Positions 818-8,394 of a stretch of DNA of 8,548 bases are shown here, piece by piece. The position numbers were made by a program, and so were the translations under genes. The notes under the pieces are model-generated. The model searched no databases. It saw only the letters and a program-made list of their open reading frames with translations, and was not told the origin of the DNA. Within the stretch, counting starts at the first letter, position 1. The number at the start of each line of letters is the position of its first letter. This DNA comes from Bacteroidales bacterium (GTDB lineage: Bacteria > Bacteroidota > Bacteroidia > Bacteroidales > ML635J-15). The DNA lies in NCBI GenBank assembly GCA_028696755.1, contig JAQVGK010000125.1:1-8548 (forward strand). Direction: 5' to 3'.

Positions 818-1678
818 ATGAGACTTGCATCAGTAATAATTTTTCTTTGCCTTTCACTATTTACAATGGCACAAACGGATGATGGGAACAACACTCCTAG
901 TCCAAAGCGCAAATATGCTCTTTCCGATTTTCGCATTGCCTATACTGGTACACTTTACAATTACAATTCTGTTTATCTCAGTCATGCTCACGATTTATGG
1001 GATTTTACAGCACCAGACTGGACTAATTGTGATTCGTTGATGGAACACGACAATCGCTCGGAGATTTATGCTGGCTTTACATTTCGAAAACAAATATTTA
1101 GTAACGAATCGTATTTTTACGGAAATATAAACTTTGGAATTATTGCAAGTACTGGTGGCAGAATAAAAGCTGGATACAAACATGATTATTTTGCTCATTA
1201 CGATTCTGCACTTATCGAATCGGAAATTGTAACAAATCTAGACACTTTGATACGTTTTCAGAACGATTATGTTTACAAGTCCACCGATCTTGGTTTTGAC
1301 ATTTCTTATACTATAAGTTCACCGCCGAAATATATTTTCAGAGCTGAGACAGGTGTTGGATTTGCCGGATTAACTAGCATTTCTGGTAGCGTTAGCTTTA
1401 CCGACACCTATTCGATAAGCGGTAAATACCGCGATCAGTATAATCGCAGCCAAAGTTTTACCTATATCGAAACTGAAACTGCTCAAATCCAGCCAAAATC
1501 GCAAATAGTTTTACGTACCTACATCCCGATTATAATGACATACAGTCCAGGAAGAAGCAAAAAGTTTGCAATTACAACATCTTTCATGGGAGGACTGGAT
1601 TTCCAAAAACCAAAAGGAGGAAATTTCTATTCTTACCCATTTTTTTCGGTTAGTGCAGGGCTTAGGTGGAGGATTTAG
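818..1678 (+). CDS. Secreted protein, probable outer-membrane beta-barrel (unknown function)
   Basis: This 286-aa protein has a clear signal peptide, MRLASVIIFLCLSLFTMAQ, with cleavage expected before TDDG. The remainder has no internal hydrophobic helix. It is rich in alternating aromatic/polar stretches such as YFYGNINFGIIASTGGRIKAG, read from about residues 98 to 119, and FRAETGVGFAGLTSISGSVS (about 170-190). It ends in FFSVSAGLRWRI, an amphipathic terminal strand of the kind that closes outer-membrane barrels, although the last residue is Ile rather than Phe. No named family was recognised; an outer-membrane beta-barrel or porin-like fold is inferred from pattern alone. It is divergent from the TonB-dependent receptor across 136 bp, so the two may share regulation. 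It converges on the metallo-hydrolase gene. The ATG at 818 starts directly before the basic residue and hydrophobic core of the signal peptide. Confidence 0.75.
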   Translation: MRLASVIIFLCLSLFTMAQTDDGNNTPSPKRKYALSDFRIAYTGTLYNYNSVYLSHAHDLWDFTAPDWTNCDSLMEHDNRSEIYAGFTFRKQIFSNESYFYGNINFGIIASTGGRIKAGYKHDYFAHYDSALIESEIVTNLDTLIRFQNDYVYKSTDLGFDISYTISSPPKYIFRAETGVGFAGLTSISGSVSFTDTYSISGKYRDQYNRSQSFTYIETETAQIQPKSQIVLRTYIPIIMTYSPGRSKKFAITTSFMGGLDFQKPKGGNFYSYPFFSVSAGLRWRI

Positions 1679-1746: not shown

Positions 1747-2457
1747 CTATGGTGCGCAGGTTTTTTTCTTTTTACGCTTAAAATTATTTTCGAGCAAGTT
1801 CCTGCTAATTGAACGTCCATGTGAGGGTAGGTATAATCTGCATTCAGTTGTCAACAACATTTGCCAACTTTTTATCAAGAGATTTGTATCATCTGCAAAA
1901 GGTGGAAATGCTGAAAACGGGAAAATTCCGAATAAAGTATCTCCAACAATTGCAATATCATCATCTACAATAATACAAATTGAACCGCAGCTATGTCCTG
2001 GGGTATGAATGATTTTGATATTACATTCTAAAAAAGGTATTGTGTTATCTTCAATTATTTCATTAGCAACACATGGCTCATAATTAATACGTGATATCCG
2101 TTTCTTTTGCAAAAATCGCATCAGAGGACGTGTAATAAAATTAGTTCCGGCAGGCGACACAGTAACACCTTCTGCCAGAAAACCTGTTTCATAGGCATGA
2201 ATCAGCACTTTAACGTTAAAATGTTTTTGAAAAAATGCAGCATTAGCTGTATGATCAAAATGAGAATGAGTTAAAATCAAAAAATCCAGATTGTTCACTT
2301 GCAGTTTTTCTAAGCGCTTTAAAATTTTGCTTCTCACAAATGAAACTGATGAATCTACTAAGATATTTTTACTCTCAGATTTAATTAAGTAACAAGCACT
2401 TCTGCCTCCGACAATTCTTATAATTTGTGATCCACCAACTGATAAAAAGCTTTTCAT
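1747..2457 (-). CDS. Metallo-beta-lactamase-fold hydrolase (cytosolic)
   Basis: This 236-aa protein has the full metal-binding set of the metallo-beta-lactamase superfamily: THSHFDH (residues 63-69; H64, H66, D68, H69), H155 in HTPGHSCGS, D173 in VGDTLF and H213 in LPSHGRS. It should bind two metal ions, usually zinc, and resembles glyoxalase II-like hydrolases; the substrate cannot be told. No signal peptide is present. The start is placed at the ATG at 2457. A longer frame would begin at TTG 2481 and overlap the upstream gene by 17 bases, whereas ATG 2457 lies 7 bases after its stop and has GGAAGAA about 10 bases upstream. The C-terminus is unusually basic (KRKKKKTCAP). It is the last gene of a three-gene operon with the GldN-like and SUMF1 proteins, so it may be co-expressed with an envelope complex while acting in the cytosol. 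Confidence 0.92.
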   Translation of the reverse strand: MKSFLSVGGSQIIRIVGGRSACYLIKSESKNILVDSSVSFVRSKILKRLEKLQVNNLDFLILTHSHFDHTANAAFFQKHFNVKVLIHAYETGFLAEGVTVSPAGTNFITRPLMRFLQKKRISRINYEPCVANEIIEDNTIPFLECNIKIIHTPGHSCGSICIIVDDDIAIVGDTLFGIFPFSAFPPFADDTNLLIKSWQMLLTTECRLYLPSHGRSISRNLLENNFKRKKKKTCAP

Positions 2458-2464
2458 GCTGATA

Positions 2465-3466
2465 TTATTCTTCCAATGCAAAACTACTCAAAAGCATATC
2501 GTGTTCGGTTTCGATCAGGCTAATTTTAAACTCTTCTGATTTTTGTAATTGGTCGTTGCTCAATTTTCCATTTTTAACAATTTCGTCGGCATGGTTGGTC
2601 GAAAGCTTAAACCCATTATGTGTCGCACCAATATCAACAATATGCTTGCAATAAGAGTCAAAATAAAATGCATCCGACATATTCTTTAATAAATCTGTGG
2701 ACTTATCCTTAGCACACTCAAATTTTGCAATATATTTTATAAGACTGGGAAAATAAAACCAATTGTCGCTTAAAACTTTTTCTGTTTTTAAATCCTTTAC
2801 AACAGGGCAGATAAATATCACCCTCGATTCCATGGCTTGTGTCTTCAAATCAAAAACGTTTTCCTCGGTAAACTTAAATGCAATAATTTTCTTATTGTCT
2901 GCAGTCTCTATGTTTGATTTCGATGCAGCATAACTTTTAAAGACTTCATAAACTTTAAAATCGTCCAAATCTTTATTTTCGCAAATCATTTTAAGAAATG
3001 CTTCATCATCAAGAACTCCAATATTCTCATCAGGAAAAACAACGCATACTACTTTCTTTGAAAACTGAATGTCGTTTTCATAAATTTTACGATAATCGTA
3101 AAAACCATCGCTGTTTCGCTGCGGAATAAAACTGCACGATTCAAGAAGGCGAATTGATTCATCCTTTGGCAAATCGGGGTAAAGCTGTGTAAATGTAAAA
3201 TTGTTCTGATAATCTCGTTTTAGAATCAGATTGCCTTTTTTATCATAGATACTCCAAATACCTGTTCGCTGATTATTGGCATAGCTTCCCTCCGACTTTA
3301 AAGTTTCGTCAGGATAAAACGACTGGTACTTACCGTTAAGCATTCCGTTCTCGGTGTAAAAACTCGCCGAATAACTACCACTTTTTATCTTTTTAAGTTC
3401 AGCTGCCTCTAAATTGGAAACTAAAAACAGACAGATTATTGCGATTGTATAATTTTGAATTCTCAT
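2465..3466 (-). CDS. Exported MORN_2-repeat protein with GldN/PorN-like domain
   Basis: This 333-aa protein starts with a signal peptide (MRIQNYTIAIICLFLVSNLEA, cleavage near residue 21). Residues 28-86 form two to three MORN_2/YwqK-like repeats, seen in GMLNGKYQSFYPDETLKSEG (41-60) and RTGIWSIYDKKGNLILK (67-83). From about residue 120 the protein resembles GldN/PorN, a periplasmic subunit of the type IX secretion ring: NDIQFSKKVVCVV (131-143), like the family's D-V-x-W-x-K-x-x-W-x-I pattern; SRVIFICPVV (214-223), like its R-x-x-GICPV; NWFYFPSLIKYIAKFE (235-250), like its FWVxYPxxRxxL; and a terminal ETEHDMLLSSF (319-329), like the family's FEHDMW ending. The GldN match is from memory of the family and divergent, with most tryptophans replaced by smaller or aliphatic residues. 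The ATG lies 5 bases after the stop of the SUMF1 gene. An alternative is a generic MORN_2 lipoprotein-like envelope protein. Confidence 0.72.
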   Translation of the reverse strand: MRIQNYTIAIICLFLVSNLEAAELKKIKSGSYSASFYTENGMLNGKYQSFYPDETLKSEGSYANNQRTGIWSIYDKKGNLILKRDYQNNFTFTQLYPDLPKDESIRLLESCSFIPQRNSDGFYDYRKIYENDIQFSKKVVCVVFPDENIGVLDDEAFLKMICENKDLDDFKVYEVFKSYAASKSNIETADNKKIIAFKFTEENVFDLKTQAMESRVIFICPVVKDLKTEKVLSDNWFYFPSLIKYIAKFECAKDKSTDLLKNMSDAFYFDSYCKHIVDIGATHNGFKLSTNHADEIVKNGKLSNDQLQKSEEFKISLIETEHDMLLSSFALEE

Positions 3467-3471
3467 AACAA

Positions 3472-4263
3472 TTAAAAAATAAAATATTTCATATACTCTT
3501 CATTTCTCTCTACTGGAACTCTAACGATCCGGAAGGCTACATAGCTTGCGCCTTTATCGTATAGCAGACAATAGTAATGATTTAGCTTGATTTTAGGTTT
3601 GAATTTATAGTTATCACCTATAATTCTTTTTCTTTTTTCTGTTTCCCCAATATTATTTTTGTGAGCATGAGCAATATCAAAACTAAAACGTACATAGTCA
3701 AAATACATTTTTGCATCTGAAACAGACCCTCCCATACTACTATACAACAAATCAGAGTATGTTTTAGATAAATCATTCTCAATCTTCATTTCCTCAAAAT
3801 AGCTATATGCCGATATCCATTCCGATGTTAATGGCAAACGATAGTAATAAGAAATCGATTCGCTTTTTTGTTCTATTTTTGCTCTCCATTCACAATAAGC
3901 CAAAGCATCTTCCCACGAAATTCCAAGAACAGGATAATTCTCAAATTTGCTATCCGATAAATAACTAGTATACCTATCTTCACAAAAAGTAATTGAAGAA
4001 TCGGGCAACATTTTAAGATAATAACTTTCGGAAGAGTCACTCTTTACAGCTTCTAAAAACATTTTATACTCGCCTAAAGTTATAAAATGGCTCATTTCGA
4101 TTTCGGGCACAGTATCGATGTACAACATTTCGTAATCGCTGTATTTCAGCAAATCGAGGCTTTGGTGTGGAATGTGATAAAATTCTCTATTCTGTGCCAT
4201 CATCTGAAAAGATAATAAAAATGCCAGACACAGAAAAATCAACGATGTAAATATTTTTGTCAT
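3472..4263 (-). CDS. Exported SUMF1/FGE-fold protein, GldK/GldJ-like
   Basis: This 263-aa protein has a signal peptide (MTKIFTSLIFLCLAFLLSFQ, then MMAQ, cleavage near 24) and a formylglycine-generating-enzyme (SUMF1) fold. Diagnostic blocks are HFITLGEYKMFLEAV (59-73), YPVLGISWEDALAYCEWRAK (110-129), YRLPLTSEW (141-149) and YVAFRIVRVP (241-250). The usual RGGSW block is not visible and only C231 lies near the C-terminal region, so oxidase activity is unlikely; a structural role, as in GldK/GldJ of the gliding/type IX secretion system, is more plausible. Unlike GldK it shows no lipobox cysteine after the signal peptide. The start is placed at ATG 4263; a longer frame would start at TTG 4281 and add six residues before the signal peptide. 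It is the first gene of an operon, 5 bases ahead of the GldN-like gene, and divergent from clpB. Confidence 0.8.
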   Translation of the reverse strand: MTKIFTSLIFLCLAFLLSFQMMAQNREFYHIPHQSLDLLKYSDYEMLYIDTVPEIEMSHFITLGEYKMFLEAVKSDSSESYYLKMLPDSSITFCEDRYTSYLSDSKFENYPVLGISWEDALAYCEWRAKIEQKSESISYYYRLPLTSEWISAYSYFEEMKIENDLSKTYSDLLYSSMGGSVSDAKMYFDYVRFSFDIAHAHKNNIGETEKRKRIIGDNYKFKPKIKLNHYYCLLYDKGASYVAFRIVRVPVERNEEYMKYFIF

Positions 4264-7164: not shown

Positions 7165-8394
7165 CTATTTTGTTTGGAGATACTCGTCCAGTTCCTCGAT
7201 TGTCATTTCGAAACTGAAAGAATCGTTAACCTTATAATATTTTGATGCATCGTAAACATAATCATAAGCATATTTTGCAAATTCAAGACGTGTATCTTCA
7301 AAACCAAAGATTTTATTTATATCGCGAATCTGCTCAGCAGTCATACATTCGCTTTTACAAATCTGTTTTGCAGTAGTGAGTTTTGTATCCTCAAATGATT
7401 TTGACTTAATGCTTGCCAATGCTTCCTGAAATTCGCTATCAGACATCGCATAGGAACATCTAGAATAAGAATTTGACGAATATGATGTTGATGACGAATA
7501 ATTATCAGTTGGAGTAACAGTGGTTCCTCCGTATGTGGTAGTTGTAGTAGTTGTTGTTGTAACAGTTTCTTCATAATCAACAACCTCCATATTTTCAGCA
7601 CCAGTAACACTAATATTCATACTGATTGTTTCACCTCCAGCTCCAGTTGTAAAATTCATGCCGTTTTCGTTGGCATTTACATCCATTGTAACGGTTTCGC
7701 CACCAGCTGTCGTACTAAAATTCATTCCATTCTCGCTTGCAGTAACATTCATATCAACGGTTTCGCCACCAGCAGTAGTTGTAAAATTCATTCCATTTTC
7801 ACTTGCAGTAACATTCATATCTACTGTTTCGCCACCTGCAGTTGTAGTAAAAGTCATTCCAGTTTCGTTCGCTGTTACATCAGTCGTAACAGTTTCGTTC
7901 ATGTCGATAGTTTCGCGCGGAACTCTTTCGGTAGTAACAGTAGTAGTTGTAACTGAAGTTTGTGTACCCGTTGATCCCGAATTATTTGAAGTACTTGAAG
8001 GCGCTCCTGGATCTTCGTACGTAGCCTGAGTGTTTGTAGTGGTTGCTGCAACAGAGTTTGCAGTTTTAGGATTTTCGCCCATATACCTTAAAACATATTT
8101 ACCTTTGTTGTTAACCTTGATAACTGCCGAAATCTCAACATTCTTACTTTCTGTCCAGAAATTTTGAGTTAATTCAGGAATCGATTTATCAACAAACACT
8201 ACTCTAGCAATAAAACTTTCACCACTAATATCTTTAGCCTTGACATTAGCTGCAGGAGTTGTATTCTGCTGTATGCTGTTAACGTAAAGTGTAAATTCTT
8301 CTCCTTTTTCAGAGAAAATAACCAAATCGTTAGTCTGAGCAAATGCTCCAATGCTTGCAAACAGAACGAAAATTAAAATAAAAATATTCTTCAT
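7165..8394 (-). CDS. Secreted DUF4476 protein with Thr-rich 22-residue repeats
   Basis: This 409-aa protein has a signal peptide (MKNIFILIFVLFASIGAFAQ, cleavage after residue 20). Residues 22-106 form an N-terminal domain often found with DUF4476, starting LVIFSEKGEEFTLYVNSIQQ and ending KGKYVLRYMGENP. Residues 107-312 are a Thr/Ser-rich linker holding four 22-residue repeats (167-254), a run of nine Thr (279-287) and a Ser/Tyr-rich tail. The C-terminal DUF4476 domain (313-405) shows CSYAMSDSEFQEALASIKSK, SFEDTKLTTAKQI, DINKIFGFEDTRLEFAKYAY and a closing FSFEMTIEELDEYL. DUF4476 has no known activity; the protein is probably periplasmic or surface-associated. No Asp-Ser/Thr-hydrophobic site, the Bacteroides O-glycosylation signal, occurs in the linker. 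It is a single gene convergent with clpB; the 30-bp palindrome lies directly after its stop. ATG 8394 is fixed by the signal peptide. Confidence 0.9.
   Translation of the reverse strand: MKNIFILIFVLFASIGAFAQTNDLVIFSEKGEEFTLYVNSIQQNTTPAANVKAKDISGESFIARVVFVDKSIPELTQNFWTESKNVEISAVIKVNNKGKYVLRYMGENPKTANSVAATTTNTQATYEDPGAPSSTSNNSGSTGTQTSVTTTTVTTERVPRETIDMNETVTTDVTANETGMTFTTTAGGETVDMNVTASENGMNFTTTAGGETVDMNVTASENGMNFSTTAGGETVTMDVNANENGMNFTTGAGGETISMNISVTGAENMEVVDYEETVTTTTTTTTTYGGTTVTPTDNYSSSTSYSSNSYSRCSYAMSDSEFQEALASIKSKSFEDTKLTTAKQICKSECMTAEQIRDINKIFGFEDTRLEFAKYAYDYVYDASKYYKVNDSFSFEMTIEELDEYLQTK
7633..7896 (-). repeat. Four in-frame 66-bp tandem repeats within the DUF4476 gene
   Basis: Residues 167-188, 189-210, 211-232 and 233-254 are 22-residue copies with the core ETVdMnVtAsENGMnFtTtA followed by GG. 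Copies two and three differ by one residue (Thr to Ser) yet by 8 of 66 bases, six of them silent. A partial copy (ETIDMN, 161-166) precedes the array and a degenerate one (ETISMNISVTG, from 255) follows. The alternating hydrophobic/polar pattern suggests short beta strands separated by Gly-Gly turns. Confidence 0.92.

What the first reader, a model, noticed from the sequence alone, without database searches (positions are those of the whole stretch)
2465..4263. GldK/GldN-like pair without GldL and GldM
An exported SUMF1-fold protein and an exported GldN-like protein are translationally adjacent (5-bp gap), mirroring the two partner subunits of the type IX secretion periplasmic ring (GldK/PorK with GldN/PorN). 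The motor genes gldL and gldM that normally sit between them are missing, and the next gene is a cytosolic hydrolase. The SUMF1 protein lacks the lipobox that anchors GldK and the GldN-like protein has lost most family tryptophans. This could be a paralogous K/N ring with a non-secretion role, an accessory ring for the canonical T9SS, or a decaying duplicate. Intact frames and tight coupling argue against decay.
Basis: partly seen in the sequence, partly recalled or inferred. Interest (0 to 1): 0.75.

Follow-up and report, generated by a model that had tools for sequence, protein, structure and literature searches.

The report
Pared-down twin of a secretion hub
Two neighbouring bacterial genes encode a cut-down, unanchored version of the two proteins that form the ring of the type IX secretion machine, and because the ring-building part is missing in the relatives compared, they probably work as a free pair rather than as a second ring.

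Summary
In detail: window 3472-4263(-) encodes an exported GldK/PorK-type FGE-fold protein and 2465-3466(-) an exported MORN + GldN/PorN protein, 5 bp apart. They belong to a conserved paralogous family ("mini-KN"): mini-K adjoins mini-N in 12 of 12 genomes where I found a full-length mini-K, and the two are one chain in 16 of 73 mini-N protein clusters. Of those 12 genomes, 11 also have canonical GldK and GldL elsewhere, and 12 have further GldM and GldN genes; the window's own genome is not held. None of 42 mini-K rows has the lipobox cysteine, the InsH domain that joins PorK subunits into the ring, or the cysteine that links GldK to outer-membrane partners. Residues of the known K-N contact are mostly kept (K: E in 38 of 42; N: D in 64 and N in 19 of 85), though not fully in the window. 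Best reading: a soluble K-N heterodimer derived from the T9SS/gliding hub that cannot form a ring by itself and acts on the canonical motor or hub, as adaptor, cap or regulator. The architecture is well supported; the function is inferred. A decaying duplicate or a second ring is unlikely.

The parts
3472..4263 (-). mini-K: leader + compact FGE-like (PorK/GldK-type) domain, 263 aa, without lipobox cysteine, InsH or the Cys loop
   Evidence: tree
2465..3466 (-). mini-N: leader + MORN beta-sheet (residues about 20-108) + GldN/PorN domain (residues about 116-333)
   Evidence: tree
3467..3471 (.). 5-bp K-N junction; from 4-bp overlap to 12-bp gap in the 10 other unfused loci (taking the first ATG where the ORF list begins N at TTG), fused in others
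   Evidence: fusions
3143..3409 (-). MORN-type beta-sheet of mini-N (residues about 20-108), where canonical GldN has only a short N-terminal stretch
2468..3121 (-). GldN/PorN-fold part of mini-N (residues 116-333)
1747..2457 (-). metallo-beta-lactamase-fold hydrolase, possibly co-transcribed here (7-bp gap); not next to the pair in L001-L007, so not part of the conserved module

Best explanation
The pair encodes a soluble periplasmic heterodimer derived from the K and N subunits of the type IX secretion/gliding hub. SHOWN by sequence and model comparison: mini-K is the FGE-like core of PorK without the lipid-anchor cysteine, without InsH (the PorK-PorK bridge) and without the loop that carries the cysteine that bonds GldK to PorG/SprF. 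Mini-N is a PorN fold that starts with a MORN sheet, where PorN has the N-terminal helix that in the ring reaches a neighbouring PorK. The two genes adjoin in every carrier found and are sometimes one polypeptide, so they are very likely 1:1 partners in one compartment. INFERRED: the unit cannot polymerise into a ring by itself. It docks through mini-N on the GldM axle, or through the remaining K/N faces onto an end or side of the canonical K-N polymer, and so acts as adaptor, cap or regulator of the canonical T9SS/gliding hub, with the MORN sheet as an extra binding surface. Confidence: about 0.85 for a ring-incompetent K-N heterodimer derived from the hub, about 0.4 for a role on the canonical motor or hub; the figure below is a compromise of the two.
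Confidence: 0.5

Rival explanations
1. A GldJ-like subunit set: mini-K is an InsH-poor FGE protein that, like GldJ, packs against N subunits, so the pair joins the canonical K-N polymer as a minority subunit or forms a thinner track.
For: PMC12421860 says GldJ has minimal InsH motif; PMC12635249 models GldJ, GldK and GldN in one filament (passages). The K tree does not fix mini-K's place beside GldK or GldJ (AU p 0.32 for mini+GldK).
Against: Mini-K scores higher with the GldK model (1.2e-11) than with GldJ models (5.2e-9, 3.3e-4); GldJ is a lipoprotein (PMC12635249), mini-K has no lipobox cysteine. GldJ's V-helix and B-loop insertions were not mapped in mini-K.
Confidence: 0.2
2. A second, independent K/N ring with a non-secretion or accessory role.
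For: Both ring partners are present and co-conserved.
Against: InsH, the lipobox cysteine and the partner cysteine are each absent in 42 of 42 mini-K rows, and the PorN N-terminal helix region is replaced by the MORN part.
Confidence: 0.07
3. A fully repurposed periplasmic complex without any T9SS link; the FGE and GldN folds serve as a binding module for another ligand.
For: Patchy distribution (full-length mini-K in 5 of 149, 1 of 395 and 6 of 199 genomes in three draws centred on carriers), no shared neighbour found beyond close kin and one DUF218 gene seen twice, fast evolution (mean distances mini-K 1.12 and mini-N 1.28 against GldK 0.64 and GldN 0.99 in the same five genomes).
Against: Residues for K-N docking and the GldM-contact segment remain recognisable in most members.
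Confidence: 0.2
4. A decaying duplicate of gldK and gldN.
For: The window's copy has lost several motif residues and lies on a long branch; the G072 fused frame has one in-frame stop.
Against: Intact frames in 11 of 12 carrier genomes and the window, dN/dS 0.11-0.29 in two genome pairs, and the same deletions throughout a deep family.
Confidence: 0.03

Closest known systems
PorK/PorN (GldK/GldN) hub ring of the type IX secretion system
   Same: FGE-like fold paired with a PorN fold; conserved K-N contact residues in most members
   Different: no lipobox cysteine, no InsH, no VR3/Cys loop in K; MORN sheet instead of the N-terminal helix in N; K and N adjoin with no gldL/gldM between; fusions occur
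GldJ, FGE-fold lipoprotein of the gliding track
   Same: FGE-like fold with little InsH (PMC12421860); contacts GldN in a published model (PMC12635249, passages)
   Different: mini-K has no lipobox cysteine and scores lower with GldJ models than with GldK
Formylglycine-generating enzyme / SUMF1 family (PF03781)
   Same: fold; matches positions 42-123 of the 255-position profile
   Different: mini-K has 24-45 residues between RLP..EW and the next [ED]W, against 75 in GldK; an enzymatic role is not indicated but catalytic residues were not mapped
MORN_2 / MORN repeat proteins
   Different: only about 90 residues, attached to a GldN domain

Membership tests
GldK/PorK | equivalog model TIGR03525 over its cut-off | tested here: not met
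   44.6 bits against 350
GldK/PorK | lipoprotein cysteine (OM anchor) | tested here: not met
   no Cys at the GldK lipobox column in 42 of 42 mini-K rows; Cys in 7 of 7 GldK; leader cysteines of the 13 locus rows lie in no lipobox-like context by eye
GldK/PorK | InsH domain bridging PorK subunits | tested here: not met
   20-21 residues in 42 of 42 against 130-315 in 7 of 7 GldK
GldK/PorK | invariant Cys343/356 for the PorG/SprF disulfide | tested here: not met
   Cys in 0 of 42 (gap in 41, Ile in 1); 7 of 7 GldK; position checked on the PorK alignment
GldK/PorK | FGE-like fold closest to PorK | tested here: met
GldN/PorN | Pfam PF19841 over its gathering score | tested here: met
   41.1 vs 23 bits
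GldN/PorN | equivalog model TIGR03523 over its cut-off | tested here: not met
   11.4 vs 85.9 bits
GldN/PorN | PorN fold | tested here: met
GldN/PorN | binding to GldM/PorM | tested here: inconclusive
   contact-segment Arg kept as R/K in 67 of 85 rows, not in the window; binding itself not testable
PorKN ring | assembles into a ring under the outer membrane | not testable with these tools
   ring-forming parts absent; assembly needs experiment
GldJ | TIGR03524 or TIGR03530 over cut-off | tested here: not met
   19.5 vs 458.2 and 35.5 vs 382.9 bits
GldJ | V-helix and B-loop insertions | not tested
   not mapped
FGE enzyme | two catalytic cysteines | tested here: inconclusive
   cysteine positions vary among 13 rows; not mapped on an FGE

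The most novel reading that the evidence does not exclude
Mini-KN is a chain-terminating or motor-parking subunit of the T9SS/gliding hub. It keeps faces that can join a canonical K-N protomer or GldM but lacks the InsH donor and the N-terminal helix that would recruit the next protomer. Its dose would then set the length or number of hub rings and tracks, or hold idle motors off the hub.
Probability: 0.18. Interest if true: 0.85.

Novelty: new variant of a known kind. Interest (0 to 1): 0.6.

Why it matters
How the K-N hub is closed into a ring of about 33 subunits in one species or extended into tracks in another, and how motors engage it, is unsettled in the papers read. A natural K-N unit without the polymerising parts, in places fused into one chain, is a ready-made minimal complex for structural work on the K-N and N-GldM contacts and a candidate regulator of secretion and gliding. 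It also shows that K and N can evolve as a stand-alone two-gene module.

Tried and rejected
Ruled out or uninformative: plasmid carriage of mini-N (no tblastn match at E<=1e-5 in the plasmid collection); defence-system link (no PADLOC family for K or N at E<=1; four weak matches for the MBL neighbour); an orphan second GldM as special partner (second GldM-like genes occur in many of the 80 relatives of G006); a conserved third gene (the neighbours I tested differ: Por_Secre_tail/SprB-repeat protein, OmpA, TonB_C, SIMPL below cut-off, DUF218 twice, Type ISP, DUF4199). One search gave 39 loci; I read the gene order of L001-L008 only and left L009-L039 unread. L008 was not counted as a member: its K-like gene lies near a contig end with no partner seen. 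Rows dropped before counts: P0015 (152-aa fragment), P0024 and P0025 (weak, E 1.4e-8 and 4.7e-8). The 42 mini-K rows are 13 locus rows, 13 proteins and 16 N-terminal pieces of fusions; the 85 mini-N rows are 12 locus rows and 73 clusters; some are the same protein (for example P0026 and G006; P0028 and G668). One of 73 mini-N clusters, P0047, has a lipobox-like motif by regular expression. The folding alignments held 63 and 55 rows chosen by me from the 145 returned proteins and the loci. The 73 mini-N clusters are P0026-P0098 of 132 matches (120 listed), above a drop from 151 to 129 bits; that cut-off is mine. The ancestral-state idea (mini-K from before InsH arose) was considered; GldK's matched range to FGE chains spans the Cys-loop region (those alignments not printed), which points to secondary loss of that loop, while InsH stays undecided. 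Paper searches for a prior description: on the open-licence PMC library only; nothing in the listings or in the passages I read described a K-N fusion or an InsH-less GldK paralogue, but I opened only two of the listed papers.

Full report

A FAMILY, NOT A ONE-OFF. Close relatives are few (P0001-P0007 for N; the eighth hit, P0008, is a MORN protein), but a profile of K brought 39 loci from the genome collection, of which I read L001-L008. In L001-L006 K is followed at once by N, and in L007 both are one 569-aa frame. Whole-genome searches with the K profile gave full-length mini-K in 5 of 149 relatives of G003, in 1 of 395 genomes spread over the phylum of G005, the centre itself, and in 6 of 199 relatives of G006. 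Centres were carriers, so these are not prevalences. With G007 that makes 12 genomes, and in 12 of 12 mini-N adjoins mini-K. Two of the 12 are fusions; one of these (G072) has a single in-frame stop in its N part. In the 10 unfused loci the junction ranges from a 4-bp overlap to a 12-bp gap, taking the first ATG where the ORF list begins N at TTG. A profile of mini-N then found 73 protein clusters that stand apart from canonical GldN, 16 of them K-N fusions of 529-590 aa, one named as from a Crocinitomicaceae bacterium.

PARALOGOUS TO THE CANONICAL HUB. Canonical GldK is over its cut-off in 11 of the 12 carriers (G001, G072, G668, G695, G700, G647; G002, G003, G004, G006, G007) and GldL lies on the same contig beside it in the same 11. 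GldM matches in 12 of 12 (in G001 only a piece at a contig end, below the cut-off) and a further GldN match exists in 12 of 12. G005 is a fragmented assembly: GldM and GldN over their cut-offs, GldK only partial matches, no GldL at E<=1e-10. Read in order, gldK-gldL-gldM-gldN stand together in G002, G003, G004, G006, G007 and the non-carrier G008, preceded by an ORF that I take for porP by eye. The trees put 22 of 22 mini-K on one side of a 100/100 branch and split 16 of 16 canonical GldN from 30 mini-N rows, also 100/100. Whether mini-K is sister to GldK alone is not resolved (AU p 0.32). For the window's own genome nothing can be said.

WHAT WAS LOST AND KEPT. From PMC12421860 (parts 1-4 of 7 read): InsH (R81-P230, the paper's numbering) bridges PorK subunits; VR3 (L327-D348) receives the PorN C-terminal end; PorN's N-terminal helix (25-37) fits a groove of an adjacent PorK; PorK E383/S384 with PorN D220 give a cysteine cross-link; PorM S460 cross-links with PorN A241. 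From PMC12635249 (passages): GldK Cys343 / PorK Cys356 is invariant and GldK Cys343 bonds to PorG or SprF. I placed these by alignment: PorK Cys356 (precursor) is in the loop RGCFLGNFKP, which by my offset of 23 between the two numberings is VR3. In 42 mini-K rows the InsH stretch is 20-21 residues (7 GldK: 130-315), no row has Cys at the Cys356 column (gap in 41, Ile in 1), and no row has the lipobox Cys. In 85 mini-N rows, PorN D220 is D in 64, N in 19, E in 2; W47 is aromatic (W 38, F 23, Y 15) in 76; the C-terminal W is kept in 81; the Arg beside the PorM contact is R in 55 and K in 12. PorK E383 is E in 38 of 42. The PorN N-terminal helix region is replaced by the MORN part. So InsH and the PorN helix that uses the InsH groove are both absent, while the direct K-N contact residues mostly stay.

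AGAINST THE SIMPLE PICTURE. The window's lineage departs at K383 (G), at the C-terminal W (L) and at the Arg by the PorM contact. The C-terminal W is kept in N although VR3 is gone in K. The fused model has pTM 0.62, so its K-N interface cannot be used, and one of four PorK chains scores below PvdO with it. The distance correlation of K and N weakens without close relatives (r 0.55, 525 of 9999, against 0.84, 0 of 9999). T9SS genes are near-universal in relatives (78 of 80 with GldM, carriers included), so co-occurrence proves nothing.

SELECTION. dN/dS for K and N is 0.29 and 0.23 between G001 and G002, and 0.11 and 0.11 between G668 and G700 (dS 2.6 and 2.8 there, so rough); the seven other gene comparisons give 0.03-0.10. 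Constrained but faster than other genes; not decay.

MECHANISM. I judge a soluble, non-polymerising K-N heterodimer as shown in outline by the anatomy (about 0.85). That it acts on the canonical motor or hub as adaptor, cap or regulator is inferred (about 0.4). A GldJ-like minority subunit and a fully repurposed complex are the main rivals.

NOVELTY. Individual domains are known. The InsH-less, unanchored K with a MORN-N partner, adjacent or fused, was not met in seven searches of the open PMC library, of whose listed papers I opened two; subscription papers and preprints are not held there. Hence 'new variant of a known kind'.

Noticed in passing
L001 3985-5787 and L002 5337-7139: dS of the mini-KN pair between G001 and G002 (0.17, 0.23) is well below that of four other genes (0.57-1.17), hinting at recent exchange of this cassette between lineages.
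   Followed up: partly
window 818-1678(+); L001 5811-6680; L002 7163-8086: An exported-looking protein without Pfam match lies convergent to the pair in L001 and L002 and beyond the MBL gene in the window; with divergent clpB it marks a shared neighbourhood (likeness of the proteins judged by eye).
   Followed up: partly
window 7165-8394(-), repeats 7645-7897: DUF4476 protein with about 3.5 tandem 66-bp repeats.
   Followed up: no
L006 11782-12273: An OmpA-domain protein follows mini-N at once, reminiscent of PorE of the T9SS, which binds peptidoglycan (title of PMC7192894 in the listing).
   Followed up: no
L131 4981-6648 (G006:C233): A full-length GldM paralogue with no gldL- or gldN-sized partner beside it by eye; second GldM genes are common in relatives.
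   Followed up: partly
G695:C3, G647:C2, G072:C70, G668:C33: Canonical gldN is present in two (three in G695) copies in a row on these contigs.
   Followed up: no
mini-K C-termini (G004, G005, G668, G700, G647, P0021, P0023): A C-terminal WG[LFI] motif in 7 of 42 mini-K rows, absent in the window.
   Followed up: no
L003 7053-7814; L127 7124-7924: A DUF218 gene next to the pair in two distant genomes, possibly chance.
   Followed up: no
L125 6895-8586 (G072): Fused K-N frame interrupted by one in-frame stop within the N part, after the MORN segment.
   Followed up: partly
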